The notes beneath the pieces are model-generated. The model saw only the letters and a program-made list of their open reading frames with translations. It was not told the DNA's origin and made no database searches. 20,126 nucleotides of DNA from assembly GCA_017622115.1 (NCBI GenBank), contig JAGART010000105.1, positions 1-20,126 of the forward strand, in the 5' to 3' direction. A program made the position numbers and the translations under genes. The DNA comes from Clostridia bacterium. GTDB lineage: Bacteria; Bacillota; Clostridia; Christensenellales; UBA1242. Below are positions 2,765 through 20,126 of the stretch, in pieces; the first letter of the stretch is position 1, and each line of letters begins with the position of its first letter.

Positions 2765-2797
2765 AAAAAAACACCCTTTATAAAAGGTGTTTTTTTA
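2765..2797 (-). terminator. Intrinsic terminator after the PrsA-like gene
   Basis: Inverted repeat ACACC(T)TTT...AAA(G)GGTGT at 2771-2790, directly downstream of the PrsA-like stop codon (2799). It is flanked by A-runs on one side and T-runs on the other. On the minus strand the hairpin is followed by seven Ts, so it is a good rho-independent terminator. The opposite strand also has a T-run, but no plus-strand gene needs it. Confidence 0.8.
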
Positions 2798-2798
2798 G

Positions 2799-4511: not shown

Positions 4512-4543
4512 GTTAATCTCTCCAAATAAAATTTAGTGCTATT

Positions 4544-4572
4544 ATTTTAACACAAAAATTGCACTTTGGCAA
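4544..4572 (-). promoter_or_regulatory. Sigma-A-type promoter of the PrsA-like gene
   Basis: On the minus strand TTGCCA (4567-4572), a 17-base spacer and TAAAAT (4544-4549) lie just upstream of the GTG start at 4511. The -35 box overlaps a weak hairpin at the end of mfd, so the gene may be fed both by this promoter and by read-through from mfd. Confidence 0.7.
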
Positions 4573-4577
4573 TCTTT
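4553..4577 (-). terminator. Possible weak terminator after mfd
   Basis: On the minus strand ATTGC and GCAAT (stem) enclose a 6-base loop (4558-4573), flanked by A-rich and T-rich arms that could extend the stem, and followed by TTTTG. It lies 6 bases after the mfd stop codon. The stem is short and AT-rich and overlaps the next promoter, so termination is probably partial at best. Confidence 0.35.
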
Positions 4578-4578
4578 T

Positions 4579-7500: not shown

Positions 7501-8046
7501 AGGTAATTCGCTATTTATAGGGAAAACATCAAGCACATCACCACGCACAGCAAATTGTCCCACACTTTCAACAGCATCTACTCTTGTATAACCACAAGAA
7601 GTCAATTTTGCAATTAAATCATCAATAGCGATATCTTGATTGTCTTCTATTTGAAGTAAACTATCTTGCCAAACTTTTTTTGGTGCAAAATGCGTGCAAA
7701 GGATTTCAGGAGTAATCACACAAGCATTTACTTCGTTATTTATGATTTTATTTAACTCAACTTGAGTAGTTACACCAGCATTACCAAATTCCATTAAGTG
7801 AAAAGTAAAATCATCATTAAAATTAGTTAAAAGAGCAACTTTTTTACCGAGTGTTGTTAAATCTTGTGCAACTAACTTTGCAATATTTTCATTTTCTGCG
7901 ACATAACACAAAAAGTCATCTGTTTGAGCAGAAATTAAAACTCTTTCACCCAAATTTAAGCCAAAAACGCTCACTTGTGTACGTGAGCGTAATTTATTTA
8001 TTAAATTAGATAAATTATTTGCTAAAAATTTTTGTGGTAATTTCAT
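4579..8046 (-). CDS. mfd: Transcription-repair coupling factor Mfd
   Basis: A 1155-residue DNA translocase that removes RNA polymerase stalled at lesions and recruits UvrA. The UvrB-homology module is near the N-terminus (about 150-205, including [14 protein letters not shown]). The RNA-polymerase-interacting and linker region contains [17 protein letters not shown]. The RecG-like motor follows: Walker [12 protein letters not shown] (about 640), [11 protein letters not shown] (about 739), [24 protein letters not shown] and QLRGRVGRS (about 908). The C-terminal TRCF domain (about 1010-1110) is present. Length is normal for the family. The start is ATG at 8046; the SD-like AGGGAA upstream is weak. 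It follows pth by 14 bases, the usual Bacillota pth-mfd pairing. Confidence 0.98.
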
Positions 8047-8060
8047 AGTTCCCTACTTAA

Positions 8061-8609
8061 TTATTTAGTATCTGAAATATCTTCGCCTTTCATAAAAATT
8101 TTAGCATATTTAACAGCATTGTCAATACCAACTGCAACATTTTCTAGCACTTGTGGCGACATTTTTTTGAGTACAAATTGCGCTAAATCGCTACCACGTT
8201 CGACAGAGTCAACACCTATTCTTATACGAGTGAATTCCGTTGTGCCTAGTCGAGCGGTTACAGAACGCAAACCATTATGAGTACCAGCAGAACCAGATGG
8301 ACGCACACGACACAATCCAGCAGTCAAATCAACATCATCTAAAAGCACACATATATCTTTGGGTTTTATATTGTATTTTTTTGCTATTGCAAACACACAA
8401 TCACCAGAATTATTCATATAAGTCAATGGCTTTAATAACAAAACATCATTGCCCTCAAACTCCGTTTCTATAACCAAACCATTTTTACGTTTTTTCTTAA
8501 ATTCAACATTTAATTCGCTTGCAATTATATCAAGGGCATTAAAACCCACATTATGTGGAGTTTTGTCATATTCTGCACCCGGATTTCCCAAACCAACTAT
8601 CATTCTCAT
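8061..8609 (-). CDS. pth: Peptidyl-tRNA hydrolase
   Basis: A 182-residue enzyme that releases peptides from peptidyl-tRNA that has dropped off ribosomes. Conserved motifs and the equivalents of the Escherichia coli active-site residues are all present: GLGNPGAEYDKTPHNVGFN with His19 (E. coli His20), LTYMNNSG with Asn66 (Asn68), LLDDVDL with Asp92 (Asp93) and GTHNGLRS with Asn112 (Asn114). The start is ATG at 8609, with AGGTAA 8 bases upstream; a second ATG two codons in is less well placed. It lies 10 bases after the glmU-like gene and 14 before mfd, in one operon. Confidence 0.97.
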   Translation of the reverse strand: MRMIVGLGNPGAEYDKTPHNVGFNALDIIASELNVEFKKKRKNGLVIETEFEGNDVLLLKPLTYMNNSGDCVFAIAKKYNIKPKDICVLLDDVDLTAGLCRVRPSGSAGTHNGLRSVTARLGTTEFTRIRIGVDSVERGSDLAQFVLKKMSPQVLENVAVGIDNAVKYAKIFMKGEDISDTK

Positions 8610-8619
8610 AAATCATTAC

Positions 8620-9453
8620 CTACTTTTTAATTTCGCCATTTTTAATATAACTAAAAGGCTCTATTATACTATTATCTCTTATTTTGCTTGTTTCTATTAC
8701 ACTATGCATAACTTGACAATTTTTGCCAATCAAACTATTGTCTATCGTGTTACCCGCCTTTAAAATAACATTGTCGCAAATATGTGTCTTACCTTGTAAA
8801 ATATTTTGCGGATAAATCACAACATTTTTGCCGATAGTTACATCAGCATCAATACTTGTCCAGTTTGAATCTAAAATTTGCACTCCGTGCTGTAAATGGA
8901 AATTTATAATACGCTTCTTTAACTTTTCAGAAGCATAATTTAAACTATCCATATCACTAACCATATAAAAATCATCTTGAAAATCCAAATTTGCAGTTGT
9001 GCTTGCATAGATTTTTTCTGCTGTACGCAAATAATCAGTAACAAATACAAAACCACGCTCTAACTTACAAACATTCATTCGTTTCGTTTTTGCATAATCC
9101 AAAACAGATAAAAAGGTCTTACGTTGTAAAAGCGGAGTATCAGCATAAAAAACAGCAGTATATTTTTTATCACTCAAACAAGGCTTTATTGTTTGTAAAA
9201 TATCAGCATTTAAAGATGTTTCAATTTCTAAAATCGGACAAGTATCAAAAGCAAGACTTACCCATTCTGTAAGTGTTTTACCCCAAATAGAATAATCATA
9301 ACTTTTTTGATTTGAAGCAAATGCTGGGTGATGAATTTTTAAAATAATAACCGCCACATCATTATCCAAAGGCTCGCTAGTACGAGCAAAAACGCTGTCT
9401 AATTCTTCCCAATCTCTTGTTTTAATTTCCTCTTGCATACTTAAAATCGCCAT
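8620..9453 (-). CDS. Truncated, catalytically degenerate GlmU-like protein
   Basis: A 277-residue homologue of GlmU, the bifunctional UDP-GlcNAc synthase of about 450 residues. The C-terminal third (about 176-273) follows the GlmU linker and first left-handed beta-helix coils, for example VTIGKNVVIYPQNILQGKTH and NSLIGKNCQVMHSVIETSKI. It stops at IEPFSYIKNG, where GlmU has IGPFARLRPG, so the acetyltransferase active site is missing. In the N-terminal half the LAAGxGTRM nucleotide loop is replaced by ILKIHHPAFAS (37-47). YADTPLL (103-109) matches the GlmU YGDxPLL strand, but the GYGRI and EHKDA segments are deleted. Start ATG at 9453, GGGAG 8 bases upstream. In Bacillus the true glmU lies upstream of pth and mfd, so this is probably a relic or repurposed form at the ancestral position. 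Activity as an enzyme is unlikely. Confidence 0.72.
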   Translation of the reverse strand: MAILSMQEEIKTRDWEELDSVFARTSEPLDNDVAVIILKIHHPAFASNQKSYDYSIWGKTLTEWVSLAFDTCPILEIETSLNADILQTIKPCLSDKKYTAVFYADTPLLQRKTFLSVLDYAKTKRMNVCKLERGFVFVTDYLRTAEKIYASTTANLDFQDDFYMVSDMDSLNYASEKLKKRIINFHLQHGVQILDSNWTSIDADVTIGKNVVIYPQNILQGKTHICDNVILKAGNTIDNSLIGKNCQVMHSVIETSKIRDNSIIEPFSYIKNGEIKK

Positions 9454-9456
9454 TTT

Positions 9457-9915
9457 TTATACTCCCTTTCGTTTACTCTTAAAAAATTCAGTTAAAATCG
9501 TTGCACACTCTTGCCCTAAAATCCCGCCAACAACTTCCACTCTATGATTAAATCTTTTATCTTCTGGCAAGTTATACAAACTACCACAGCAACCAGCCTT
9601 TGGGTCATAAGCCCCAAAATAAACAGCACGCAATCTAGTATTGATACAAGCACCAGCACACATAGGACAAGGCTCTAATGTAACATACAAATCACAATCT
9701 AATAAATGCCAGTCGCCTAAAACTTTTTGTGCCTTTTTTAAGACTTCCAACTCTGCGTGTAGTAAAGCATTTTTATTTTTATTTTTAGTATTATACGCCC
9801 TAGCAATCACTTCACCATTTCGCACAACAACCGCACCCACAGGCACTTCATCTAACTCTTTTGCTTTGACCGCTTGTTTTAAAGCCTCACGCATAAACTT
9901 TTCTCTTTGTTGCAT
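9457..9915 (-). CDS. tadA: tRNA-specific adenosine deaminase TadA
   Basis: A 152-residue zinc deaminase that converts A34 to inosine in the wobble position of tRNA-Arg(ACG). The zinc and catalytic motif is complete: HAE at 53-55 (His53 ligand, Glu55 general acid/base) and PCPMC at 82-86 (Cys83, Cys86). The segment VPVGAVVV (24-31) is also typical. Length matches the family. The start is ATG at 9915 with AGGAG 9 bases upstream. It is the first gene of tadA-glmU-like-pth-mfd; the next gene begins 3 bases after its stop, with its SD inside the tadA end. Its promoter is at 9983-10011. Confidence 0.96.
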   Translation of the reverse strand: MQQREKFMREALKQAVKAKELDEVPVGAVVVRNGEVIARAYNTKNKNKNALLHAELEVLKKAQKVLGDWHLLDCDLYVTLEPCPMCAGACINTRLRAVYFGAYDPKAGCCGSLYNLPEDKRFNHRVEVVGGILGQECATILTEFFKSKRKGV

Positions 9916-9936
9916 ATATTTTTGCTCCTAAAATAA

Positions 9937-9954
9937 TTGCTTAAATTAAAGCAA
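9937..9954 (-). repeat. Small inverted repeat in the tadA leader
   Basis: TTGCTT and AAGCAA form a 6-bp stem with a 6-base AT-rich loop inside the predicted 5' leader of the tadA transcript, between the promoter and the SD site. No T-run follows, so it is not a terminator. It might affect mRNA stability or bind a protein; nothing further can be said from the sequence. Confidence 0.5.
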
Positions 9955-9982
9955 CGTAAACTTTCGCATTTTATACAAATAC

Positions 9983-10011
9983 ATTGTATCAAAAGTACAC
10001 AAAAAACGCAA
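9983..10011 (-). promoter_or_regulatory. Sigma-A-type promoter of tadA-glmU-like-pth-mfd
   Basis: On the minus strand TTGCGT (10006-10011), a 17-base spacer and TACAAT (9983-9988), with an extended -10 TGATACAAT as in the tmk promoter. The predicted leader is about 60 bases long and contains the inverted repeat at 9937-9954. Confidence 0.75.
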
Positions 10012-10025
10012 ATAATTTTATAAAA

Positions 10026-10060
10026 TTAAAAATAAAAAGATAGCCTAATTTGCACTATCT
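10026..10060 (-). terminator. Intrinsic terminator of the orphan gene
   Basis: On the minus strand AGATAG and CTATCT form a 6-bp stem (10055-10060 with 10038-10043) around an 11-base loop, followed by TTTTATTTTT. The left arm overlaps the TAG stop codon of the small gene at 10059. It separates that gene from the tadA operon. Confidence 0.65.
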
Positions 10061-10394
10061 ATTTTGATTTATTTAAATTTTTCCAAATATATTCAACTCC
10101 GCCATCATCGTAAAATATAAATTTTTCTTTTCCAATTTCTTCTATTAATTTATTAAAGCCAACAAAAATTTCCTCTGTTATCGATAATAGTTCTTGCTCA
10201 TTCATTGTTGCTTTATTTTCTCTAAAAAAATTCAATTTTTTAAATGGTTCAAAATTATAAATTTGCTCATCATTTGTATCATCTGCATAATCTTCCAAAG
10301 CCAAATCTCTACTTAAATTACATTTTAAAAATTCTTTATATTTAAAGTAAATCTTTTCACTTGACCACTCTTTTCCTTTTTCATCTATGTACAT
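10059..10394 (-). CDS. Small acidic protein of unknown function
   Basis: A 111-residue protein that I do not recognise. It starts at ATG 10394 with an unusually G-rich SD (GGGGGAG) 4 bases upstream, and ends at TAG inside a terminator stem. It is charged and soluble-looking: MYIDEKGKEWSSEKIYFKYK at the N-terminus, an acidic stretch ALEDYADDTNDEQIY (about 32-46), a predicted helical centre (about 64-90) and a C-terminal KFIFYDDGGVEYIWKNL. There is no signal peptide or membrane segment. The tryptophan-, tyrosine- and acid-rich composition is reminiscent of small immunity or adaptor proteins, but that is only an impression. A candidate promoter at 10462-10489 and a terminator make it a stand-alone unit, which supports it being real. 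Confidence 0.72.
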   Translation of the reverse strand: MYIDEKGKEWSSEKIYFKYKEFLKCNLSRDLALEDYADDTNDEQIYNFEPFKKLNFFRENKATMNEQELLSITEEIFVGFNKLIEEIGKEKFIFYDDGGVEYIWKNLNKSK

Positions 10395-10461
10395 TTAACT
10401 CCCCCTCATACAAACATAAAATATATTTTTAAGTGCTTTTCCTCGCCTTTTTATTATAATA

Positions 10462-10489
10462 ATTTTAACACATATTTTAATATTCGTAA
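10462..10489 (-). promoter_or_regulatory. Candidate promoter of the small orphan gene
   Basis: On the minus strand TTACGA (10484-10489), a 16-base spacer and TAAAAT (10462-10467). The sequence TGTGTTAAAAT around the -10 box also occurs in the PrsA-like promoter. A second TATAAT (10453-10458) lies 3 bases further downstream but has no convincing -35. The leader would be about 60 bases. Confidence 0.45.
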
Positions 10490-10501
10490 AGCAAAATAAT
10501 T

Positions 10502-11356
10502 TTAATTTTTTATGGATTTTTTTCGTAAAAATTCAAGCAAATCTAACATTATATTTTCGTTTTTTTGCCATATTTGAGGAAGGGCTTCTATTTTTATAGG
10601 GTGAGTTAAAAAATCTTGCCCAACCTCGATTGTTAAGGCGGGAATATTGCATTCCATAATACACCAATCTTTGTAACCTCCTGCACTTTTACCTGTTGGC
10701 TCGATTTTATAACCTGTACTACGGCTTGCCACCTTTGCAATTTGCTTATGTTTGTGTTTTACGCATAGTTTTTGATGAAAATCGTAATAAATCACTTCAC
10801 CCTTACTATGAAAACTTAATGTTAAATCTGGCTTAATTTGTTTTGTAAAATTCATTAAACATTGTGTTTCTGGCTCACTTGCAGGAAATTCGCCTATATA
10901 GTTTTGAAAATTAGGCACACGCAAATTAGATTTACCCAGCCCCCACTTTGCAGGGAAATTTACATTTAAATCCACCGCCCTAATATTTGCTTTCCAGCGA
11001 GAAAAGTCTAAATTCGGCTCTAATTTTTTTAGCAAATCTTGCTTTTCGTTTGGCACAGAACTTAATCCATCTAAAACAAGCCCAACACCATCAATATTTA
11101 CAATAGGTACAAAGTATATTGTGCCTTGCCCGTGTTTAAGTGTTTTTAACATTTTGATAATATGTAAATTTGCTAAATAGTATGTAATATATTCTCTTGC
11201 GTGAATTGCATATTGAGCAATTATTTTAGGTTCACCACACCCCACCGCAAAAGCATAAATAGGACGATTTAATACTGTTTTGCCTATAAGTATTTTTTCC
11301 GCCCCCAAAGTTTCTAATTTTTTATAATCTTTTTCTAAATTTTCAATAAAACTCAT
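10502..11356 (-). CDS. M14-family zinc carboxypeptidase-like protein
   Basis: A 284-residue metallopeptidase homologue made up of the M14 domain alone. Zinc ligands and the catalytic glutamate are visible: HAREY (His52, Glu55), LSFHSKGE (His183), LTIEVGQ (Glu244). Bacterial relatives include gamma-D-glutamyl-diamino acid peptidases that cleave peptidoglycan peptides. Here there is no signal peptide, LysM or other wall-binding module, so it may act inside the cell on recycled muropeptides or other peptides (inference). In VDLNVNFP (128-135) valine 132 replaces the arginine of the usual NRNF motif, which binds the substrate carboxylate, so specificity may be altered. The ATG at 11356 has no SD site; a promoter placed so that transcription starts at the ATG suggests a leaderless mRNA. 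Confidence 0.87.
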   Translation of the reverse strand: MSFIENLEKDYKKLETLGAEKILIGKTVLNRPIYAFAVGCGEPKIIAQYAIHAREYITYYLANLHIIKMLKTLKHGQGTIYFVPIVNIDGVGLVLDGLSSVPNEKQDLLKKLEPNLDFSRWKANIRAVDLNVNFPAKWGLGKSNLRVPNFQNYIGEFPASEPETQCLMNFTKQIKPDLTLSFHSKGEVIYYDFHQKLCVKHKHKQIAKVASRSTGYKIEPTGKSAGGYKDWCIMECNIPALTIEVGQDFLTHPIKIEALPQIWQKNENIMLDLLEFLRKKSIKN

Positions 11357-11363
11357 ACAATAA

Positions 11364-11391
11364 ATTATGTGTTTAATTTATGGATTGTTAA
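11364..11391 (-). promoter_or_regulatory. Candidate promoter giving a leaderless M14 peptidase mRNA
   Basis: On the minus strand TTAACA (11386-11391), a 16-base spacer and CATAAT (11364-11369). The A of the ATG (11356) is 8 bases after the last base of the -10 box, where transcription would be expected to begin. The -35 box lies inside the inverted repeat at 11383-11400. Confidence 0.5.
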
Positions 11392-11400
11392 AAAGCAATC
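11383..11400. repeat. Inverted repeat in the divergent intergenic region
   Basis: GATTGTT and AGCAATC face each other around four As (one G-T pair). It lies in the 71-base gap between the divergent M14 and membrane-protein genes and covers the -35 box of the M14 promoter. No T-run follows on either strand close to the stem. It could be an operator, but no regulator gene is adjacent. I could not find a convincing promoter for the plus-strand gene in this gap. Confidence 0.45.
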
Positions 11401-11427
11401 TAAAAAACTTTTTATAAGGTGTGTATT

Positions 11428-12168
11428 ATGGATTTTAGTCCTATTTTAGTATTTTTAATTACTATGGTACTCGCTATGCTTCCTATTGTAGAAATCCGTG
11501 GAGCATTGCCAGTAGGAATGAGTGTTGCGCTTTGGGGCACAGGTGCATTATCCCCTGCTTTATCGTGGCTAGCAAGTTTGCTGGGTGGTATAATCGCTTG
11601 TTTTATAGCAGTACTTGTGTTTTTGCCTTTTAGAAAATTTCTATCACGATACAAGATTTTTCAAAAAGTATTTACTCATTGCGATAAATCCGTGCAAGAC
11701 TGGGTGGAAAAATTTAGCCAACAACAACTAAAACGCAAAAATAAAAAAGAGAAGAAACTAGATAAAACAGTCATTAATAATCCAACAATCATAGAAAATA
11801 AGCAAATAGAATTTACCCCTCAAACAAAAGTTGAAAACGTACAACAGAAGCCCGCTAAAAAACGAGATAAAGCAACGTTTTTAAAATCTGCTATTGTATT
11901 TATATTTTGTGCATTGCCTATTCCTTTTTCTGGTGTTTGGAGTGCTGGGGCTTTGTGTAGTATTTTAAAGTTAAGTTTTACACCTAGCGTAATAGTGCTA
12001 ATTTTAGCAAATATTTTGAGTAGTGTCGTTGTTGGCTTCTTTTGTATAATGTTTGCCGAATTTATTGATTTAGTGCTTGTCGTTATGGTGCTTTTAATGC
12101 TATTCGTTTTTATTTATAGTGGCCTTGCTTATGTTTTAAATCGTAAATCAAAAAATCAACAACAATAA
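11428..12168 (+). CDS. Small multidrug export family membrane protein (PF06695-like)
   Basis: A 246-residue membrane protein. The start is ATG at 11428, because AAGGTG lies 7 bases upstream; an in-frame GTG at 11419 has no SD ahead of it. Two motifs mark the family called putative small multi-drug export protein (COG2426 type): MLPIVEIRGALPVGM (17-31) and ALPIPFSGVWSAGAL (about 161-175). Hydrophobic segments lie at about 5-30, 45-68, 152-175, 178-205 and 212-236. Between the second and third is a long, lysine-rich, asparagine/glutamine-rich hydrophilic loop (about 80-150), longer than I would expect for the family and probably cytoplasmic. The transport role is only the family's working name; the substrate is unknown. 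Confidence 0.82.
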   Translation: MDFSPILVFLITMVLAMLPIVEIRGALPVGMSVALWGTGALSPALSWLASLLGGIIACFIAVLVFLPFRKFLSRYKIFQKVFTHCDKSVQDWVEKFSQQQLKRKNKKEKKLDKTVINNPTIIENKQIEFTPQTKVENVQQKPAKKRDKATFLKSAIVFIFCALPIPFSGVWSAGALCSILKLSFTPSVIVLILANILSSVVVGFFCIMFAEFIDLVLVVMVLLMLFVFIYSGLAYVLNRKSKNQQQ

Positions 12169-12203
12169 AATTATTAAAAATTTACGAATTTATCTCTTTT
12201 TTA

Positions 12204-12232
12204 TTGTGAACAGCAATTAAATGTGCTATAAT
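12204..12232 (+). promoter_or_regulatory. Sigma-A-type promoter of the CPBP gene pair
   Basis: TTGTGA (12204-12209), a 17-base spacer and a consensus TATAAT (12227-12232). The predicted start is about 23 bases before the ATG, leaving room for the AAGGAG SD. The 94-base gap upstream has no convincing terminator for the preceding gene. Confidence 0.8.
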
Positions 12233-12262
12233 ATTTAAACATTATCTTACAAGGAGAAATAA

Positions 12263-13231
12263 ATGCAAAAACGATTGCGTTTTGAATATCCAGACGGAGT
12301 AAAAGCAAGCCTTTGGGGAATTTTATCACCCTTAATAGTTGCATTAGTCGTAAGTATCGTGGCTTCTATTGTTTGCGTGATTGCAGAAATTGCACCCGAA
12401 ACACTTGACACAAATCCCGCATTTCACTTAATTACTAATGCTATAACACAATTAGGATTTTTATCTGTTGCTTTGATTTTGGCGTACAAAACAAAAACGA
12501 ACATTGTAGAAGCAACAGGACTTAAAACTACTTCGCCGTGGTGGATTTATATACTTTGTGCAGTACTCGCTATTGCAATTAGTTTACTTTTAAATCCTAT
12601 TATCGCAAGTTGGCAAGAATTATTAAGTTTAATTAATTTTAACGTACCTGATTTACCTATTGAAGTAAACAGTGTTGGTAACTTATTTTTGCTATTAGGT
12701 CTTATGGCTGTACTTCCTGCTATTTGTGAAGAACTTTTGTTTCGTGGTGTACTTTTAAATAGTTTACGTAAATATGGTGCTGTCGTTTCAATTTTTTTAA
12801 GTGCTACATTTTTTAGCCTTATGCATATGAGTTTGTTGCAACTTCCATATACTTTTGCTTTGGGTGTGTTGTTGGGTATCGTTGTTTACTACACTCGAAA
12901 CCTCACATTAAGTATGATTATGCACTTTACTAACAATGCCTTTGTATTAATTTTAGAATATCTCACCTATGGACAAGCACAATCAGCCTTTCCGTGGTAT
13001 ATGGTACTTATCGGTTTAGCAGGTGTAGCAATCTTTGTATTAATTATTTATTTCGTGGCAAAATTATTAAATAAAGTTTGTTTTGCTAAAACGCAAAGTA
13101 CAGAACAACAATATTTAGCCATTCAACAAGATTTGCCTCAAAAAGTACGTAAATCTATGTGGCTTATGCCTAGCCTTGTAGCAGGATTTTGCTTAATTAT
13201 TATGAGTTTAGTTTCTTTTGGAGTATTATGA
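12263..13231 (+). CDS. CPBP-family intramembrane glutamic/metallo-protease, first copy
   Basis: A 322-residue polytopic membrane protein with all three conserved blocks of the CPBP (Abi, Rce1-like) family: CEELLFRG (Glu156, Glu157, Arg161), FFSLMH (His188) and HFTNN (His221, Asn225). In this family the paired glutamates and the histidines form the active site. Members process prenylated proteins in eukaryotes, and in bacteria are linked to bacteriocin self-immunity or surface-protein processing. The start is ATG at 12263 with AAGGAG 7 bases upstream and a consensus promoter. Its stop overlaps the start of a second CPBP gene (ATGA). No bacteriocin precursor is visible nearby, so the substrate is unknown. 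Confidence 0.9.
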   Translation: MQKRLRFEYPDGVKASLWGILSPLIVALVVSIVASIVCVIAEIAPETLDTNPAFHLITNAITQLGFLSVALILAYKTKTNIVEATGLKTTSPWWIYILCAVLAIAISLLLNPIIASWQELLSLINFNVPDLPIEVNSVGNLFLLLGLMAVLPAICEELLFRGVLLNSLRKYGAVVSIFLSATFFSLMHMSLLQLPYTFALGVLLGIVVYYTRNLTLSMIMHFTNNAFVLILEYLTYGQAQSAFPWYMVLIGLAGVAIFVLIIYFVAKLLNKVCFAKTQSTEQQYLAIQQDLPQKVRKSMWLMPSLVAGFCLIIMSLVSFGVL

Positions 13232-14403
13232 AAAATTTAATTACTAATAAAAAAATATTTTATAGCGGACTAGTTTATTTTATATGTATTTTACTATTTA
13301 TAGGTGCTAGAATACTTTGGGGTACAGGTTTTTTAAGCGGGATTGACCCTCTTTGGGGGGACTTAATTTTTAGTATAGTAATCCAGTTGGTTATACTTAC
13401 TGCCCTACCTCTATTGTTGTGGAAAACACTTTGTAAACAAACATTTAAACAAACAGCCGAACATTTCTTTATACGAAAAATATCTTTTAGAACAGTTGTT
13501 TATTCTATCTTATTAGGAATATTAGTTTACGTTTTAATTATTTTTGTATCTACATTTTGGAGTTTAATTTTAAGTTTCTTTGGTTATTCACCTAGTGGCG
13601 GTGGTACAACAACAGACTTACCAGTTTGGCTTGCTTTTATCGTTTCGATTGTTTCTACCTCATTTTTACCTGGTTTCGGCGAAGAAATGGCACATCGTGG
13701 AATGTTGCTAGGCAACGCACGAGGCAACGGGCTAAAACGAGCAATTTTAATTACAGCACTTATGTTTGCACTTGCTCACCTAAATATCAGTCAAGCAGGT
13801 TATGCTTTTGTAGTTGGTTTAATTTTGGGTGCTAGTACACTTATTACTCGTAGTATATGGCCTGCTGTGATTGTTCACGCAACTTCAAACTTCTGCTCTG
13901 TTTATATGTCTTTTGCAGAAGCAAACGGCTGGTTAGGTGGCTCTATAACTTCAACAATGACAAACTTTATCACTCAAAACTGGCTTGCAGGATTAATTGT
14001 TTCTTTCTTGATTTTAATGATTGTACTCACATTAATTGCAATTATTATTAGTAGATTTTTTGAACAAACCAAATATAAACGTTTTCAAGAATTTTGTACA
14101 AGACTTAAATCTTCTGTTACTGGCACACAATTAGAAAAAGAAATTGATTTTAACGATAAACTTCAACTTTACACTTTATATAGTCAGGCAGCAGCAAAAG
14201 ACTTAAAAGATAAAGTAGAAAGCGGACAACTACCTATTTCCCATTTAGAAAAAGAAGTCGGCAATAACCCACTTTACTCAATGCTGTATAGTGAATTTGA
14301 CGAGTACAAAAAACCAAACTCCATAGACTATCTATTCTATTATATCACGATATTTATGGCAGGTATAGTAACATTAATTACTCTAATTTGGGGAATATTA
14401 TAG
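13228..14403 (+). CDS. CPBP-family intramembrane protease, second copy with C-terminal extension
   Basis: A 391-residue protein. The start is ATG at 13228 inside the ATGA overlap with the preceding gene, with GGAG 4 bases upstream; an in-frame upstream extension to 13189 lies within the first CPBP gene and is unlikely. The active-site blocks are complete: FGEEMAHRG (Glu152, Glu153, Arg157), FALAH (His184) and HATSN (His217, Asn221). After the protease core comes a charged soluble stretch of about 100 residues (about 268-365), then a final hydrophobic segment (about 369-389) at the C-terminus. The extension is absent from the first copy. Coupled translation suggests that the two proteases work together, perhaps as a heteromer, but that is inference. 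Confidence 0.9.
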   Translation: MKNLITNKKIFYSGLVYFICILLFIGARILWGTGFLSGIDPLWGDLIFSIVIQLVILTALPLLLWKTLCKQTFKQTAEHFFIRKISFRTVVYSILLGILVYVLIIFVSTFWSLILSFFGYSPSGGGTTTDLPVWLAFIVSIVSTSFLPGFGEEMAHRGMLLGNARGNGLKRAILITALMFALAHLNISQAGYAFVVGLILGASTLITRSIWPAVIVHATSNFCSVYMSFAEANGWLGGSITSTMTNFITQNWLAGLIVSFLILMIVLTLIAIIISRFFEQTKYKRFQEFCTRLKSSVTGTQLEKEIDFNDKLQLYTLYSQAAAKDLKDKVESGQLPISHLEKEVGNNPLYSMLYSEFDEYKKPNSIDYLFYYITIFMAGIVTLITLIWGIL

Positions 14404-14406
14404 ACA

Positions 14407-14435
14407 AAAAAACACTAGAAATTCTAGTGTTTTTT
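14407..14435. terminator. Bidirectional intrinsic terminator between convergent genes
   Basis: A near-perfect inverted repeat: arms AAAAAACACTAGAA and TTCTAGTGTTTTTT (14 bases each) around a single A. It lies between the CPBP stop (14401-14403) and the tyrS stop (14437-14439), so it can end both converging transcripts. The symmetric A/T tracts give a T-run on either strand. Confidence 0.9.
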
Positions 14436-14436
14436 G

Positions 14437-15663
14437 TTATTTTAACACACAAAAGAAATATTTCTTTTTACCCCTACGAATAACAACAACTTCATCATCA
14501 ATAGCAATATCTTTATTAATCACTAATTTATTGTCTTTTATAACCTCTCCATTTATAGAGATTGCACCACTATCTATAAATTCATTAGCCTCTCTTTTAG
14601 AAGAACAAATTCCTGTTGAAACCAAGATTTCTAAAATCGTATTTTCTGTTATATCAAAATGCGGCACACTTCTTAAGCCAACATACAAATCATTTACTGG
14701 TATTTTTTTAATTTCACCAGCAAACAACATTTGACTTATCATTTCAGCTTCTTTAAAAGCATCTGGTCCATGTAAATCTGTAATAATTTCTTGAGCAAGA
14801 CGTTTTTGAGCAATTCTTAAATGAGGCTCTGCTAGGTGTTGTTTTTCGATTTCTTCAATTTCCTCTTTTGTTAAAAAAGTTAATCTTTTAAGATAATCGA
14901 TTATCACAACATCTTCACTATTAATTAAAAATTGATACAATTCATAAGAGCTTGTTTTTTCTCTATCTATCCAAACAGCATTTCCTTCACTTTTACCAAA
15001 TTTCTTCCCATTAGCATCGGTAATCAACGGCATTGTCATGGCATAAACCTCTTCACCAGTAGTTTTACGCACTAATTCTATACCAGTAGTAATATTACCC
15101 CATTGGTCTGACCCCGCGACTTGTAAATCAACATTCATATTTTCATGTAGAAATTTAAAGTCAAGCCCTTGAATAAGCATGTAAGAAAATTCCGCGTAAG
15201 AAATTCCACTACTTTCCATTTGCCTTCTTACCAAGTCTTTACTTAACATGTATCCTACATTAATATATTTCCCATAATCCCTTAAAAAATCAATAACATT
15301 TATTTCTTTTACCCAATCATAATTATTTATAACAGGATAAGGAAAAACTTTTTGAATCTGCTTTTTTAATTTTTCAAAATTATACAAAATCTCATCACGA
15401 TTTGCTAATTTTCTTTCAGTAGTACCACGTGGGTCTCCGATTAGACCTGTTGCCACGCCTATTAAAATTAATGGATTATGACCCGCTTTTGCAAGTCTTC
15501 TTGTGATTAAAAAAGAAGAATAATGTCCCAAATGTAAACTATCAGCAGTAGGGTCTGTTCCTATATAAAAAGTCATTCCACCATTATTTAATTTTTCAAT
15601 TAATTCCGGACTTGAAATATCTTGTATAAGTCCTCTCCACTTTAAATCTTCATAAACTGTCAT
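14437..15663 (-). CDS. tyrS: Tyrosyl-tRNA synthetase
   Basis: A 408-residue class I enzyme that charges tRNA-Tyr. Present are FYIGTDPTADSLHLGH, with the HIGH equivalent HLGH (44-47); GLDFKFLHENMNVDLQVAGS and DQWGN (186-190) of the tyrosine pocket; KFGKS (221-225) as the KMSKS loop; the alpha-helical anticodon domain; and a C-terminal S4 RNA-binding domain (about 340-400). The start is ATG at 15663 with GGAG 7 bases upstream. It is the last gene of the unit that begins with cysS. There is no T-box leader, because the preceding gene ends 16 bases upstream. Whether it is the only tyrS of the genome or a second copy belonging to the cassette upstream cannot be decided here. Confidence 0.97.
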   Translation of the reverse strand: MTVYEDLKWRGLIQDISSPELIEKLNNGGMTFYIGTDPTADSLHLGHYSSFLITRRLAKAGHNPLILIGVATGLIGDPRGTTERKLANRDEILYNFEKLKKQIQKVFPYPVINNYDWVKEINVIDFLRDYGKYINVGYMLSKDLVRRQMESSGISYAEFSYMLIQGLDFKFLHENMNVDLQVAGSDQWGNITTGIELVRKTTGEEVYAMTMPLITDANGKKFGKSEGNAVWIDREKTSSYELYQFLINSEDVVIIDYLKRLTFLTKEEIEEIEKQHLAEPHLRIAQKRLAQEIITDLHGPDAFKEAEMISQMLFAGEIKKIPVNDLYVGLRSVPHFDITENTILEILVSTGICSSKREANEFIDSGAISINGEVIKDNKLVINKDIAIDDEVVVIRRGKKKYFFCVLK

Positions 15664-15679
15664 AAAAAATCTCCATTAT

Positions 15680-16420
15680 TTAAACTTTATTTTTATATTT
15701 ATCTTTTAACAATAATATATAATTATCTAATTCTTCTTGAGTCCAATTCATAGACTCGACACTTTTTTTAAAAAGATGCCTAACAATATCACTTTTTAAA
15801 TTTGATAAAATTTCAATTACTTTTATATAAAAATCTTTTAAGCAATCTAATGCAATCCATCCCTCATTAATTAAAACTGAATTTAATATCATAGAATGAA
15901 TATTTGACATTCGATAAACACCTTTATCAAACGGATAGTATAAAAATTTTAGAATATAGCCACTTGAATCTTCAGATTTTGTTTCACTATATTTCATAAT
16001 ATCTTCTTTTCCATTCGATGTTGGAAAAACCTCAAAAGATTTATATTGCGATAAAGGAAATTGTCTCCAACTCTTATATTCAATTTTTTCAAAATTAACC
16101 AATCGAAAAAAATCTTTATATGATATGTATTTGATATGTATTTGATTTCTCCCAATTCCATATATAGATGTAAAATTTAGCATCTGAATTTTTTCATTAA
16201 TAAATAAATCCCATTCATCTTTATTTAAAAATTTTTTTATTGAATTTTTATCCTCTAAAATTATAATAATATCTATATCAGATTTACCATTATTAAACCT
16301 AGAAAAATCCCCATTCATCATACAAGATGTCGCAAAACTACCAGTAACCAAAACAACATCATTTTTTGTATATAATTTTTTATCACATAAATAATTACTT
16401 AAATCCTTCAATGTATACAT
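15680..16420 (-). CDS. Pol-beta-superfamily nucleotidyltransferase-like protein
   Basis: A 246-residue protein. The N-terminal part shows the superfamily signature VLVTGSFA (Gly27, Ser28) followed by KSDIDIIII (Asp48, Asp50), the two metal-binding carboxylates. The family moves a nucleoside monophosphate onto small molecules, proteins or RNA. The third carboxylate is not evident: the strand where I would expect it reads NQIHIKYIS. The rest (about 70-246) is helical with many aromatic and basic residues and matches nothing I recognise. The start is ATG at 16420 with AGGAG 6 bases upstream; the gap to the preceding gene is 9 bases. It is very AT-rich. It is the fourth member of the cassette between cysS and tyrS; its substrate may be a cassette product (inference). 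Confidence 0.75.
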   Translation of the reverse strand: MYTLKDLSNYLCDKKLYTKNDVVLVTGSFATSCMMNGDFSRFNNGKSDIDIIIILEDKNSIKKFLNKDEWDLFINEKIQMLNFTSIYGIGRNQIHIKYISYKDFFRLVNFEKIEYKSWRQFPLSQYKSFEVFPTSNGKEDIMKYSETKSEDSSGYILKFLYYPFDKGVYRMSNIHSMILNSVLINEGWIALDCLKDFYIKVIEILSNLKSDIVRHLFKKSVESMNWTQEELDNYILLLKDKYKNKV

Positions 16421-16429
16421 TTCATTCTC

Positions 16430-17026
16430 CTAAAAATCATCTACAATTATAAATTGATTTTGCGAATTTACATATTCATGATAAAAATAGGCAATATTTG
16501 AACTTCTTTTACCCAATAATAAAACATCGCAAAAAGTAAACGCAAATTCTATTGTTTTTATTTCTAAATATGTATGCATTAACTCTCCCAAAGTTAAATC
16601 ACTTAAATTTATCCTTTTCTTTTTGGGAAGAAAATTATAATACGATTTATGTGGAATTTTTTGCAAGAATGCAAAAAAGTCTTCTATGGATATTTTGTTT
16701 TGTTTGGAGCTTAAAAAAATCTGACAACGATTACCAAAGAAATCATAATACAAATCAATTAATTCATCTTGAACAGACTGCTCTAATTTCATATATATCT
16801 TTGAACAATTATCATCAATAATAACATTAAGCTTATTTTTTGTTAATAAATTATTTAAATCAATAAAATTATTGAATATGTCTTTAGGCTTACTTCTCGC
16901 CCATACAAAAAAACCAATATTTAGTTCTTTTTTTAATAATTTCAATTCATTCAAAGGACTTCCCACAACATCTATAAAAAGACTTGAAAATTTTCTTAAT
17001 AAGTCTAAATCATTTCGCTTTTTCAT
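16430..17026 (-). CDS. Small protein resembling a degenerate class I aaRS Rossmann domain
   Basis: A 198-residue protein with no family that I can name securely. Its order of segments follows the TyrRS catalytic domain: strand GFFVWARSKP, a helix, strand LNVIIDDN, a helix DELIDLYYDFFG, then CQIFLSS and ISIEDFFAFLQKI. Last comes LGELMHTYLEIKTIEFAF with DVLLLGKRSSNIAYF, which parallels the TyrRS segment ending VDLQVAGSDQWGNI. There is no HIGH, no KMSKS and no C-terminal domain, so tRNA charging is not expected. It overlaps the preceding TyrRS-like gene by 17 bases; the ATG at 17026 has no SD, so translation is probably coupled. The paralogy with TyrRS is my own visual alignment and could be wrong; it may be an unrelated alpha/beta protein. 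It is strongly AT-rich. Confidence 0.6.
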   Translation of the reverse strand: MKKRNDLDLLRKFSSLFIDVVGSPLNELKLLKKELNIGFFVWARSKPKDIFNNFIDLNNLLTKNKLNVIIDDNCSKIYMKLEQSVQDELIDLYYDFFGNRCQIFLSSKQNKISIEDFFAFLQKIPHKSYYNFLPKKKRINLSDLTLGELMHTYLEIKTIEFAFTFCDVLLLGKRSSNIAYFYHEYVNSQNQFIIVDDF

Positions 17027-17996
17027 TTTTTTGAACCAACTTAAATAACAAATTCTTCCCTACTTTTATTTTAATTTCAGGCTCAACTATTGTATCTACC
17101 TGCAATATTTGATTGTTCATAGTTCTAACAGCATTTTGTGCAAATAATCTTTTTAATTCACTTTTTGATTTAAAAACATTAGATGACAATAAAATTTCAA
17201 TAAGTTGTTTGTTATTATCTATTTCTATTTTTTTAAAATCACTATCTTTGTATTTATGTTTTGCAATTTTTGACATATACAATGCTAACATTTTAGTTCC
17301 TATATTTTTCTGTTTATTTGCATAAACTATATTAACAATAAATTCCGCCAAATTTTTTTTAGCATCATAAGGATTTTTATTAACTAAATTTTGAATATCC
17401 ATTGTATTAGAAAACAAATAATTATATAAATCTATCATTTTATCATCTGATAATGACATAATTATCATAAATAAATCAAACGGATTGTCTAAAATCTTAT
17501 TAATTTGATTTTTATCCAAATATACATTTATTTTCCTAACAATAAAATCTTCATTTTTGTAAAAATTTTTATATTCATTGAAAATTATTTGTTTACTATC
17601 TAACATCTCTCTTTCTAATTCGAAAAGAAAAATATTACTTTTTTCTATAAAGGAACTATCATTTTCAGGATTCCAAAGCTTAATATCTTCTAACTTATTA
17701 AAAACATCTTCAAATGTACATCTTCTTAATAAATATTTATCATCAACTATATCAAAACTTTTTAACATAGATAATTTTCTTAAAATATAAATACAAAAAT
17801 TCTTATTTTCATCTTTTAAAAATATATCCAAAACTAAATATGCTTTTTTATCTAAAACTAATTTTAACTTTATAACTGTTAAAATAAAATCAAATAAAGT
17901 GTTTGTATTAAATAAAGTATTCGAAACATGCAATATTAAAGAGTCTTCATTGTTATAGCTATTTTTTTCTTTATTGTAAAAATCAATCAAATTCAT
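17010..17996 (-). CDS. TyrRS-like protein lacking HIGH and KMSKS motifs
   Basis: A 328-residue protein whose C-terminal half reads as a tyrosyl-tRNA synthetase. NPFDLFMIIMSLSDDKMIDL (about 171-190) and NPYDAKKNLAEFIVNIVYA (about 208-226) parallel the TyrRS anticodon helices (SSYELYQFLINSEDVVIIDY). LIEILLSSNVFKSKSELKRL and IKVGKNLLFKLV (about 265-323) parallel its S4 domain. The N-terminal part (about 18-100) looks like a shrunken Rossmann fold, with strand LILHVSNTLF, strand AYLVLDIF and a helix, but the HIGH, DQWGN and KMSKS motifs are absent. It therefore probably binds tRNA or an aminoacyl group without classical activation. The ATG at 17996 has AAAGG 5 bases upstream, and the gene overlaps the Nudix/MurA-like gene by 14 bases. 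A very low GC content suggests a different origin from the neighbouring core genes. Confidence 0.65.
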   Translation of the reverse strand: MNLIDFYNKEKNSYNNEDSLILHVSNTLFNTNTLFDFILTVIKLKLVLDKKAYLVLDIFLKDENKNFCIYILRKLSMLKSFDIVDDKYLLRRCTFEDVFNKLEDIKLWNPENDSSFIEKSNIFLFELEREMLDSKQIIFNEYKNFYKNEDFIVRKINVYLDKNQINKILDNPFDLFMIIMSLSDDKMIDLYNYLFSNTMDIQNLVNKNPYDAKKNLAEFIVNIVYANKQKNIGTKMLALYMSKIAKHKYKDSDFKKIEIDNNKQLIEILLSSNVFKSKSELKRLFAQNAVRTMNNQILQVDTIVEPEIKIKVGKNLLFKLVQKNEKAK

Positions 17997-19644
17997 AATA
18001 ACCTTTTACATCTGCAAGAGGTGAAATTTGAGCTACATTTTCATAACCACGCAAAAGTTGTTTCAGATTTGTTATCTTGCATTCTATCTCTAATTCCATT
18101 AACATAATCAATACAGCAGAAGCTCTAATATCCAAACATTCAAAGGAGTTTGGAATGCTATCTTGTAATTTATTATCCATTTTTGCAATCATAATGTTAT
18201 TATTTATTTCTGATATAGAATTAGAATAAACACTAGATATTTGCTCAAAATAACCAAATCTATTTTCAAACACATTATCAATAATTTTTGCTTGTCCTTT
18301 ATTTTTTAAAGCCAAGTATGCTAGCATTGGTTGCCAATCACTACATAATGCTGGATAATGGTCACATAAAATATCCTTATCTTTTAAATTACCCAATTGA
18401 TTTTCATATATTTCAATACTATTATGTTTGTATTTATATTTTACTCCAATTTCATCAAAATAATGCAACAAAGATGTTAAATATAAGTTTTCTTCATTAC
18501 TGAAATAAAAAGGTTGTTTATTAATAAGACAATCCACTATTCTAGTAACTACCACATTTCTATCTGGCGGAATAATAATTTCAACATTGCGAGGTTCATT
18601 ATAATTAGGAAATATTAACAAATCTCTTTCTTTTCTCCTTATTTCCCAACCCATTTCTTTAATTATATTTATCAAAAACAAAATCTCAGGCTCTAAAGAA
18701 ATATTTTTTAAATAAGTTTTACCTTCATTCAATAATGCACAATAAATCGCCATTGACGTACCTGTAAACGAAGGGAACGGAAGTGTAACTGTCAAATCTT
18801 CATTACATTTACAAAATTTTATTTCAATATTATTATATTTTTGGGTTTTAACAGAAAAACCAAACTTTTTCATAATATCCAAATATAATTTGATTGAGCG
18901 TTGTCCAATTTTACAACCAGTTGGCTTGCTTTTTAACAAGATTTTTTTATGATTGTATACCAAAAAAGGTAAAATATTTACAGTTGACCAACAATTCCCA
19001 ACATCTTCTTCATATAAAATCATAGGTTGTCCATGCAAAACTTTAGATTTTTTTATTATTCTATACATATAGTATGAATCCATGATATTAGGCGCATTTT
19101 TAATTCTTACTTTATCACTAAACTCCACCAATGGAATAACTCGTGAAAATATATGTTTGGAAGGCATTATATTTTCTTTTAATATCACATTATTCTTTAA
19201 GCCTAAATTAACCCAGCATATGGGTCTTTTTATCAATTCCTCTATTTCATTAACAATTGTATAACTTTTAAACGTAGGTATTGAATACAATTCCGAAACT
19301 TCAACCCATCTGCAATCTTTAAAAACTGTTTCTAAAATATATTCTGTATTACATGTAACACCAATATAATAAATAATATTTTTATTTATTATATTATTAT
19401 TACTATCCAAATAACTATATTTTTCAACAAAAAAGTATTTATTTGGATTCATATAGAAATTACATGTAATACCAACTTCTTCTTTCAACTCTCTTTTTGC
19501 TGTTTCTAACGGAGATTCTCCTTTCTCTATATACCCCTTACTAAATCCCCAATGTCCATCCGGATGTTTAATAAGTAAAACTTTCCTTTCCTCAAATGAA
19601 ATCAATATTGTTCCAGCTGATGTATATGTTTCCAATTTTTCCAC
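17983..19644 (-). CDS. Nudix hydrolase fused to MurA/EPSP-synthase-like enolpyruvyl transferase
   Basis: A 553-residue two-domain protein. Residues 1-135 are a Nudix domain with a perfect box, GX5EX7REUXEEXGU, from Gly37 to Ile59 (RELKEEVGI at 51-59). Residues about 137-553 have the MurA/AroA fold at full length. Key MurA residues are conserved: MPSKHIFSR (Lys163 for Lys22; His164 where MurA has Asn23), PTGCKIGQRS (Cys244 for Cys115, Arg249 for Arg120), LPFPSFTGTS, YPALCSDWQ (Asp436 for Asp305), VFENRF (Arg462 for Arg331), LDIRASA (Asp505, Arg507 for Asp369, Arg371) and LRGYEN (Arg532 for Arg397). Transfer of enolpyruvyl from phosphoenolpyruvate to an acceptor hydroxyl is likely; the acceptor is unknown, and a nucleotide would fit the fusion. 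The listed GTG start has a weak SD; TTG at 19635, with AAGGTGG 5 bases upstream, may be the true start (550 residues). It follows cysS by 11 bases. Confidence 0.87.
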   Translation of the reverse strand: MEKLETYTSAGTILISFEERKVLLIKHPDGHWGFSKGYIEKGESPLETAKRELKEEVGITCNFYMNPNKYFFVEKYSYLDSNNNIINKNIIYYIGVTCNTEYILETVFKDCRWVEVSELYSIPTFKSYTIVNEIEELIKRPICWVNLGLKNNVILKENIMPSKHIFSRVIPLVEFSDKVRIKNAPNIMDSYYMYRIIKKSKVLHGQPMILYEEDVGNCWSTVNILPFLVYNHKKILLKSKPTGCKIGQRSIKLYLDIMKKFGFSVKTQKYNNIEIKFCKCNEDLTVTLPFPSFTGTSMAIYCALLNEGKTYLKNISLEPEILFLINIIKEMGWEIRRKERDLLIFPNYNEPRNVEIIIPPDRNVVVTRIVDCLINKQPFYFSNEENLYLTSLLHYFDEIGVKYKYKHNSIEIYENQLGNLKDKDILCDHYPALCSDWQPMLAYLALKNKGQAKIIDNVFENRFGYFEQISSVYSNSISEINNNIMIAKMDNKLQDSIPNSFECLDIRASAVLIMLMELEIECKITNLKQLLRGYENVAQISPLADVKGYYEFD

Positions 19645-19655
19645 CTTGTTTTTTG

Positions 19656-20126
19656 TTATATTTTTTCTGCAAAAGAACCTTCTTTTGTATCAACAATTTT
19701 ATAACCTAAATCTGTTATTTGTTGTCTAACTTCGTCCGCTTTTCCCCACTCTTTTTCACTTCTATATTTATTACGCAAATCTAAAAGTTGCAAAATTTCA
19801 GCAGGTACTTCTTGTTCAGTTTTTTCTTCTTGCATATCAGCAATATTTAGCCCAAATACTTTATCAAAATCAAGAAGTAAAGTGTATTTTTCATCAGCAG
19901 ATAAATCATTATCTTTAATCATAGTCCACATAACAGCCATTGCTTGCGGAACGTTTAAATCGTTGCAAATTGCAGATTTAAATTGATTTAAATAATTTTT
20001 AGCATATTCACTTAAATCACCCAAATCTACTATTTTAGGGTTTGTTGATTTAATTTTTACTACTGCACTTGTTAAATTTTTAAATCCATTGTTTGCACCT
20101 TGCAAAATTTCCATACCATAAAGAAG
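19656..20126 (-). CDS. cysS: Cysteinyl-tRNA synthetase, C-terminal part
   Basis: The frame is open to the right edge (the last codons before the internal Met read LLYG), so this is the C-terminal 156 residues of a longer protein. The pattern matches the helical end of CysRS: AICNDLNVPQAMAVMW (usual form DDLNTPxAL), LLLDFDKVFGL, LLDLRNKYRSEKEWGKADEV (usual RxxARxxKDWxxAD) and ITDLGYKIVDTKEGSF. The catalytic domain lies outside the window. The stop TAA at 19656 is followed after 11 bases by the Nudix/MurA-like gene, with no terminator between, so the cassette is probably co-transcribed with cysS. Confidence 0.93.
   Translation of the reverse strand, partial: LLYGMEILQGANNGFKNLTSAVVKIKSTNPKIVDLGDLSEYAKNYLNQFKSAICNDLNVPQAMAVMWTMIKDNDLSADEKYTLLLDFDKVFGLNIADMQEEKTEQEVPAEILQLLDLRNKYRSEKEWGKADEVRQQITDLGYKIVDTKEGSFAEKI

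What the first reader, a model, noticed from the sequence alone, without database searches (positions are those of the whole stretch)
15680..19644. Four-gene accessory cassette lodged between cysS and tyrS
Seen: cysS, a Nudix/MurA-like fusion, a TyrRS-like protein without HIGH/KMSKS, a small aaRS-Rossmann-like protein, a nucleotidyltransferase and tyrS lie on one strand with gaps of 16 bases or less or with short overlaps. Known: MurA-type enzymes outside peptidoglycan synthesis exist (for example the enolpyruvyl-UMP synthase of the nikkomycin/polyoxin pathways), and aaRS paralogues are used in natural-product and amino-acid modification pathways. Inference: the four genes could make or modify a nucleotide- or aminoacyl-linked small molecule, with tyrS as housekeeping gene or self-resistance copy. 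I know of no described system with this combination.
Basis: partly seen in the sequence, partly recalled or inferred. Interest (0 to 1): 0.82.

Follow-up and report, generated by a model that had tools for sequence, protein, structure and literature searches.

The report
Mobile gene cassette with extra TyrRS
A rare four-gene cassette, found in very distantly related bacteria and travelling with a spare copy of the enzyme that loads tyrosine onto tRNA, probably makes an unknown tyrosine- and nucleotide-related small molecule.

The parts
19656..20126 (-). C-terminal 156 aa of a cysteinyl-tRNA synthetase, cut by the contig end; probably foreign to the genus
   Evidence: cysS models; 23-30% to seven same-genus cysS, six of which are 57-87% alike among themselves (the seventh, G003, is 28-33% to those six); only copy found in this genome
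17983..19644 (-). NM: Nudix domain (about residues 10-121) fused to MurA-type enolpyruvyl transferase (about 155-540)
   Evidence: MurA K22/C115/R120/D305/R331/R371/R397 equivalents kept in 12 of 12, N23 replaced by H in 12 of 12 (numbering recalled)
17010..17996 (-). ORF2: descendant of a cassette TyrRS without the catalytic motifs; keeps the TyrRS C-terminal domain (residues 167-322), N-terminal 166 aa unmatched
   Evidence: C-terminal tree with the cassette TyrRS clade 97/95 (24 rows); open frame not by chance
16430..17026 (-). SM: stand-alone TyrRS catalytic-type (HUP Rossmann) domain without HIGH or KMSKS
15680..16420 (-). NT: nucleotidyltransferase-like protein, G-x-S-D-x-D motif, no clear third acidic residue
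   Evidence: all family matches below cut-off or weak
14437..15663 (-). tyrS2: complete second TyrRS (LHLGH, KFGKS), not the genus's native tyrS
   Evidence: (358.2 bits against 113.8)
14407..14435 (+). Terminator-like hairpin between tyrS2 (-) and the CPBP-like gene (+); the scan lists it on the + strand
   Evidence: 2 found, 1.2 expected by shuffle

Best explanation
It is a small, horizontally spread biosynthetic cassette for a nucleotide-type small molecule, with its own extra TyrRS as self-protection. Proposed steps (all inferred): the Nudix half of NM trims a nucleoside polyphosphate or nucleotide sugar; the MurA half moves enolpyruvyl from PEP onto a sugar hydroxyl of that nucleotide, not onto UDP-GlcNAc; SM, a TyrRS catalytic domain that can no longer bind ATP the usual way, holds an aminoacyl group (from Tyr-tRNA or Tyr-AMP) and joins it to the nucleotide; NT adds or removes a nucleotidyl group. 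The product resembles tyrosyl-adenylate and would poison TyrRS, so the cassette carries a TyrRS that tolerates it. In the window that TyrRS has decayed to ORF2, keeping only its RNA-binding end, and a TyrRS from another Clostridia-class lineage (tyrS2) has taken its place at the end of the operon. Shown: gene content, co-occurrence, extra TyrRS copies, SM fold (as a prediction), loss of ORF2 catalytic motifs, foreign character of tyrS2. Inferred: substrates, product, resistance.
For: Co-occurrence in 4 of 4 full-length NM loci, with NT and SM fused into one protein in L022. An intact extra TyrRS in all five loci: the four genomes have another TyrRS elsewhere and the window genome has native tyrS on C92. 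Cassette TyrRS together with the TyrRS of G014 is a distinct clade (100/100, stem 1.06); the two scored pass TIGR00234. It has M at the Q173-equivalent pocket position in 4 of 4, where 36 of 41 TyrRS keep Q: an altered amino-acid site, as target resistance could give. The swap of ORF2 for a TyrRS of another type fits a role that any tolerant TyrRS can fill. A TyrRS of this clade is the only one found in G014 apart from one weak match, so the type can probably serve translation. An MccF/MccC-type S66 hydrolase gene lies upstream of NM in L022. MurA-type catalytic residues are kept 12 of 12 while the N23 position is H in 12 of 12. SM has H151-x3-E155 (E in 13, Q in 2 of 15) and no HIGH/KMSKS. 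Precedents: albomycin's divergent serS2 in the cluster (PMC9032320, passages); NikO on UMP (PMC6801904, passage); MccF (PMC7916415, passage).
Against: No product; no transporter shared by the loci was noticed (ABC genes adjoin in L021 and occur in L023); no peptide gene noticed. The host genome is about 1 Mb and one NM relative comes from a Patescibacteria record (P0008): unusual producers. The MccF-type gene is in 1 locus only (the upstream side is visible in four of five, L021 being cut there), and S66 proteins also act in peptidoglycan recycling (only NCBIfam hit is muramoyltetrapeptide carboxypeptidase, 36.6 bits against 378). The Q173 position is V in G014, where no cassette is near, so the change may be clade drift. 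tyrS2 itself keeps Q and looks ordinary. NT lacks an evident third acidic residue and may be inactive. The native/foreign junction in the window could be an assembly or binning error.
Confidence: 0.37

Rival explanations
1. Same kind of biosynthesis, but the extra TyrRS is a biosynthetic supplier of Tyr-tRNA (or an analogue-tRNA) to SM, not an immunity gene; ORF2 keeps the RNA-binding end to hold the tRNA.
For: TyrRS stays within the cassette and its Q173 position is M in 4 of 4; ORF2 keeps the RNA-binding C-terminal domain under an intact, tightly packed frame; SM resembles tRNA-using cyclodipeptide synthases in being a lone class-Ic domain (PMC4159871 passages).
Against: Any housekeeping TyrRS could supply Tyr-tRNA; in Baia and Paenactinomyces the TyrRS gene is on the opposite strand from the other three, as an independently controlled gene.
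Confidence: 0.27
2. A toxin-immunity or anti-phage system acting on tRNA-Tyr or nucleotides: NM/NT/SM disturb charging or nucleotide pools on infection and the extra TyrRS protects the host.
For: Very sporadic distribution, low GC of the four genes (0.20-0.27 against 0.30-0.38 in 12 scored flanking genes), degraded second SM/TyrRS remnant in Baia.
Against: No match among PADLOC models beyond a Nudix part; no relative found in viral contigs (NM, SM) or, for SM, in phage or plasmid records; enolpyruvyl transfer is unknown in defence (recalled).
Confidence: 0.12
3. NM is simply the cell-wall MurA of this organism and the rest are unrelated neighbours.
For: No other MurA was found in the window genome, whereas 95 of the 97 other genomes match NM, nearly always over its MurA half.
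Against: The MAG is 86.6% complete; NM scores 151 bits against the murA cut-off 392.7; N23 is H in 12 of 12 NM and the PSVGAT loop is changed; co-occurrence with NT/SM/TyrRS in four other genomes.
Confidence: 0.05
4. The window junction is a chimera: the cassette with tyrS2 and cysS belongs to another organism in the sample.
For: tyrS2 and probably cysS are foreign, native tyrS exists elsewhere, GC of the four cassette genes differs, contig ends inside cysS.
Against: Continuous 20-kb contig with a compact junction; horizontally acquired islands look the same. It would not touch the cassette's existence or the other four loci.
Confidence: 0.12

Closest known systems
Albomycin-type clusters with a self-resistant aaRS (serS2/abmK)
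   Same: Divergent extra aaRS gene travels with biosynthetic genes while the housekeeping copy is elsewhere (PMC9032320 passages; here)
   Different: TyrRS instead of SerRS; no siderophore or thionucleoside genes noticed; resistance untested
NikO / enolpyruvyl-UMP synthase of nikkomycin biosynthesis
   Same: MurA-type enolpyruvyl transferase outside peptidoglycan synthesis (PMC6801904 passage); NikO is among NM's PDB matches (1.7e-21)
   Different: NM scores better against MurA (best 3.3e-44), has an N-terminal Nudix domain, and its acceptor is unknown
Cyclodipeptide synthases
   Same: Lone class-Ic aaRS-type catalytic domain without tRNA-binding domain (PMC4159871 and PMC9437257 passages); SM has H-x3-E where CDPSs have Y178-x3-E182 (residues named in PMC4159871; the correspondence is mine)
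   Different: No Pfam match; W-A-R with no conserved Ser after the first-half strand; its own invariant WARxxPK, DDxC, SS, PxK set
MurA (UDP-GlcNAc 1-carboxyvinyltransferase)
   Same: Sequence match over most of the MurA half and catalytic residues
   Different: N23 to H in 12 of 12, R91 to W in 9 of 12, changed PSVGAT loop, Nudix fusion
Microcin C self-immunity hydrolase MccF
   Same: S66 protein upstream of NM in L022 is nearest to structures named MccC family or MccF
   Different: One locus only; 3.4e-13 at best, function untested
Bacillus TyrZ-type second TyrRS
   Same: Auxiliary TyrRS beside housekeeping TyrS (PMC9437257 passage)
   Different: Cassette clade is separate in the tree made here (no TyrZ itself was included), has M at Q173 and travels with NM/NT/SM; T box not looked for

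Membership tests
Cyclodipeptide synthase (SM) | Class-Ic (TyrRS-like) catalytic fold as a separate protein | tested here: met
Cyclodipeptide synthase (SM) | Match to a curated family model | tested here: not met
   no Pfam family at E<=1 for SM of the window, L021 and L023, nor for the NT-SM fusion of L022
Cyclodipeptide synthase (SM) | Catalytic Ser nucleophile in the loop after the first-half Rossmann strand | tested here: inconclusive
   Loop reads W-A-R in 15 of 15 with no conserved Ser right after it, but the residue mapping is by secondary structure and eye only
Tyrosyl-tRNA synthetase (SM) | HIGH and KMSKS ATP-binding motifs | tested here: not met
   None seen in the 15 aligned SM
Tyrosyl-tRNA synthetase (cassette TyrRS of L021-L024) | HIGH, KMSKS and tyrS equivalog score | tested here: met
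   Motifs in 4 of 4; 243.6 and 266 bits against 113.8 for the two scored, L021 and L023
Tyrosyl-tRNA synthetase (ORF2) | Catalytic domain with HIGH and KMSKS | tested here: not met
   Only residues 167-322 match; 33.2 bits against 113.8
MurA (NM) | Catalytic Lys22, Cys115, Asp305, Arg397 equivalents | tested here: met
   12 of 12; numbering recalled
MurA (NM) | Asn23 equivalent and curated murA score | tested here: not met
   H in 12 of 12 against N in 23 of 23 comparison proteins, read from the alignment; window NM 152.8 bits against 392.7
Enolpyruvyl-UMP synthase (NikO) | Transfers enolpyruvyl to the 3'-OH of UMP | not testable with these tools
   Sequence only; NikO ranks below the MurAs
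Nudix hydrolase (NM N-terminus) | Nudix box GX5EX7REUXEEXGU | tested here: met
   Box read in the window; G34 R48 E49 E52 E53 invariant, E40 nearly so, in 12; PF00293 over cut-off
Nucleotidyltransferase (NT) | Glycine-serine and DxD motif, third acidic residue and family match | tested here: inconclusive
   GxSDxD in 5 of 5; no clear third acid; matches weak or below cut-off; fold not predicted
aaRS-inhibitor cluster with self-resistant aaRS | Extra, divergent aaRS next to candidate biosynthetic genes, native copy elsewhere | tested here: met
aaRS-inhibitor cluster with self-resistant aaRS | Extra aaRS confers resistance to the product | not testable with these tools
   No product known
Known anti-phage systems (PADLOC 2.0.0) | Match to a system model | tested here: not met
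   of 10 proteins only NM matched, PDC-S07 over its Nudix part (2.7e-8)

The most novel reading that the evidence does not exclude
SM founds a new family of TyrRS-derived enzymes that use charged or activated tyrosine without ATP motifs, and with an enolpyruvyl-nucleotide made by a Nudix-MurA fusion builds a new class of TyrRS-directed molecule; the cassette spreads between distant phyla together with exchangeable TyrRS immunity genes.
Probability: 0.33. Interest if true: 0.87.

Novelty: new variant of a known kind. Interest (0 to 1): 0.7.

Why it matters
Natural inhibitors of TyrRS with a known gene cluster are scarce (recalled; PMC7916415 names SB-219383 as a tyrosine analogue that targets TyrRS, passage). 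A compact cassette that pairs a MurA-type transferase with an ATP-motif-free TyrRS domain and a mobile extra TyrRS would give a genetic handle on such molecules, and a new example of an aaRS catalytic domain turned to other chemistry. Two carriers that are named strains (Baia soyae DSM 46831, Paenactinomyces guangxiensis CICC 11033) make it directly testable.

Tried and rejected
Housekeeping tyrS/cysS with a cassette dropped between: rejected for tyrS, unlikely for cysS. A first comparison misread loci whose match lies on the minus strand, and one search repeated this for cysS; one search replaces both. In one search L080 gave a 17-aa ORF and two cysS rows (G002, G058) gave nothing; these were dropped. 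In the C-terminal tree 17 of 41 rows were left out because my motif search did not find their KMSKS variant.

SM as TyrRS-like by sequence: no support; only the predicted fold shows it. ORF2 against SM: none. No CDPS is among the 50 rows shown; that list is filled by TyrRS and excludes nothing. NT against PDB sequences: none.

Phage or plasmid carriage: SM not in plasmids or phages; no relative of NM or SM in viral contigs by the pattern scans. NT and TyrRS were not searched there. (single-sequence NM scan of genome contigs) confirmed nothing; with the alignment gave 7 relatives, 4 of them full-length fusions. L025 is a lone MurA-like gene; L026 and L027 match the Nudix part only and were not opened further.

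MetK and the ABC genes of L021, the epimerase and lanthipeptide genes of L023, the TPR regulators and small proteins of L023 and L024 and the S66 gene of L022 are each in one or two loci, so not counted as core.

Equal contig lengths (P0002/P0025 4109; P0003/P0029 89090) suggest that NM and SM lie together there too, but those contigs could not be opened. The contexts of P0004-P0008 are unknown, and the SM search reported no protein whose longest contig has the length of theirs, so co-occurrence there is unproven.

Hairpins behind the CPBP gene in G006 and G005 differ from the window's and do not settle the junction.

Literature: searches returned 0 papers for the combinations; followed single leads. 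Papers were seen as search listings and, for five (PMC7916415, PMC9032320, PMC6801904, PMC4159871, PMC9437257), as passages only. 'Not described' means not found by these searches in that library.
Full report
What is there. The six minus-strand ORFs and their tight junctions are as described. The reading is cysS C-terminus, NM (Nudix + MurA-type), ORF2 (TyrRS-like), SM (small protein), NT (nucleotidyltransferase-like), tyrS. A terminator-like hairpin at 14407-14435, listed on the + strand, separates tyrS from a convergent CPBP-like gene (that family name is read from the sequence, not scanned). Promoter-like sites are no more frequent than in shuffles (39 against 45.1), so they say nothing.

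It is a conserved cassette. A protein search found 11 relatives of NM, of which 8 (one being the window's own) carry both domains; the other seven are 35-63% identical and one comes from a Patescibacteria record. An alignment scan of one genome per species confirmed 7 relatives, 4 of them full-length fusions: Erysipelotrichaceae MAG L021, Clostridia MAG L022, Baia soyae L023, Paenactinomyces guangxiensis L024. In all 4, NM is followed by NT (overlapping it as called ORFs), SM and a TyrRS. In L022 NT and SM are one protein; in L023 and L024 TyrRS lies between NT and SM on the opposite strand. The other three relatives are a lone MurA-like gene and two Nudix matches. SM searches hit 1 of 391 genomes of the class and 1 of 398 of the phylum, both times the window genome itself (the two samples overlap), and 2 of 23 in the family of Baia, both already known. 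A protein search with the SM profile gave 13 proteins including the window's. In the relatives search no match in the other 97 genomes spans both NM domains.

The window island looks foreign. mfd on the same contig is 53-70% identical to that of six of eight same-genus genomes and the left part keeps its gene order, so the contig is native there. The four cassette genes have GC 0.20-0.27 against 0.30-0.38 for 12 flanking genes (two short or cut ORFs not scored); tyrS2 has 0.31, within the host range, and cysS 0.29, just below it. The genome carries another tyrS on contig C92, 72-85% identical to seven same-genus copies (56% to the eighth, G003), to which the window tyrS is 36% identical. The window cysS end is 23-30% identical to seven same-genus cysS, six of which are 57-87% alike; the seventh, G003, is itself only 28-33% like those six, so cysS divergence is not unique to the window. 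The nearest relatives of tyrS2 are in another part of the class (three genomes of one family 59-60%, one of another 55%, of 391 searched) without cassette or cysS in the fetched stretches. Beside the conserved CPBP-like gene, G006 has a glycosyltransferase-like gene and G005 a gltX-like gene instead (names read from the sequence). A chimeric contig cannot be excluded.

ORF2 and the TyrRS swap. ORF2 residues 167-322 match the C-terminal domain of the cassette TyrRS (hhalign 99.1%) and group with the cassette TyrRS clade plus the TyrRS of G014 (97/95, 24 rows; long branch). The other 166 residues match nothing here, yet the frame is open far beyond chance. So ORF2 most likely descends from a cassette TyrRS that lost its catalytic motifs, and tyrS2 is a complete TyrRS of another type beside it. 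In L021-L024 the cassette TyrRS is intact and is an additional TyrRS in each genome. Full-length tree: cassette TyrRS + G014 100/100 with a stem of 1.06 changes per column. The position of TyrRS Q173 is M in the four cassette enzymes, V in G014 and Q in the other 36 of 41. G014's copy is the only TyrRS found there apart from one weak match (its genome is 91% complete) and stands beside genes that read as proS and pheST, so enzymes of this clade probably work in translation.

NM. The Nudix half matches CT771 (4ilq) and Ap4A hydrolases best among solved structures; the other half matches MurA (best 3.3e-44), with NikO at 1.7e-21. Across 12 NM and 23 MurA-type comparison proteins, the catalytic Lys, Cys, Asp and Arg positions are kept in all NM (the Cys is Asp in two comparison proteins); the Asn after the catalytic Lys is His in 12 of 12 NM and Asn in 23 of 23 comparison proteins; the R91 position is Trp in 9 of 12 NM; the PSVGAT loop reads PSFTGT or a close variant (read from the alignment). 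This argues for enolpyruvyl transfer to an acceptor other than UDP-GlcNAc. No murA was found elsewhere in the 86.6%-complete MAG, which limits that argument for the window organism, but not for the cassette.

How it may work. An MccF/MccC-like S66 hydrolase gene lies 139 bases upstream of NM in L022; MccF cleaves the aspartyl-AMP bond of microcin C (PMC7916415, passage). Albomycin producers protect themselves with a divergent SerRS in the cluster (PMC9032320, passages). Together with the constant extra TyrRS, this makes a TyrRS-directed aminoacyl-nucleotide my first choice (0.37), with a supplier role of TyrRS next (0.27). The steps 'Nudix trims, MurA half adds enolpyruvyl, SM transfers tyrosyl, NT adds a nucleotidyl' are conjecture; NT may be inactive.

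Novelty. I found no described system with this gene set (0 papers in the held library; PADLOC). Each part is of a known superfamily, so I file the whole as a new variant of a known kind (biosynthetic cassette with aaRS paralogues), with SM as a possible new aaRS-derived family.

Noticed in passing
L025 (Paenibacillus glycinis), 2040-17844: Cluster with MurA-, MurB- and two MurC-like paralogues, UMP-kinase-like, phosphopentomutase-like, carbamoyltransferase-like and Nudix-like genes; its MurA-like protein (D in place of the catalytic Cys) shares the PSFTGT loop with NM. Looks like another nucleoside pathway built on Mur paralogues (names read from the sequences, not scanned).
   Followed up: partly
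L072:8375-8967 (Baia soyae C1 about 171.4-172.1 kb): Degraded second copy of the SM/TyrRS part of the cassette, divergent orientation as in L023.
   Followed up: partly
L070:8326-9573 (G014): The only clear TyrRS found in this family member is of the cassette clade, with V at the Q173 position, beside proS- and pheST-like genes: possible takeover of translation by a cassette-type TyrRS.
   Followed up: partly
L022:11640-13022: NT and SM fused into one 460-aa protein, which suggests that the two act together.
   Followed up: no
L023:8386-8727, L024:8529-8873 and 9441-9827: Small 'RLEGP' proteins next to a divergent HTH-TPR protein upstream of the cassette in both Thermoactinomycetaceae-type loci; no family match above cut-off for the two scanned.
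   Followed up: partly
L023:15596-21627: LanB/T/C-like lanthipeptide genes downstream of the cassette in Baia soyae (read from the sequences).
   Followed up: no
window 12263-14403: Tandem pair of CPBP-like membrane proteins, conserved in 4 of 6 same-genus loci examined.
   Followed up: no
window 20126: Contig ends inside the probably foreign cysS, so the right end of the island is unknown; this is the only cysS found in the MAG.
   Followed up: partly
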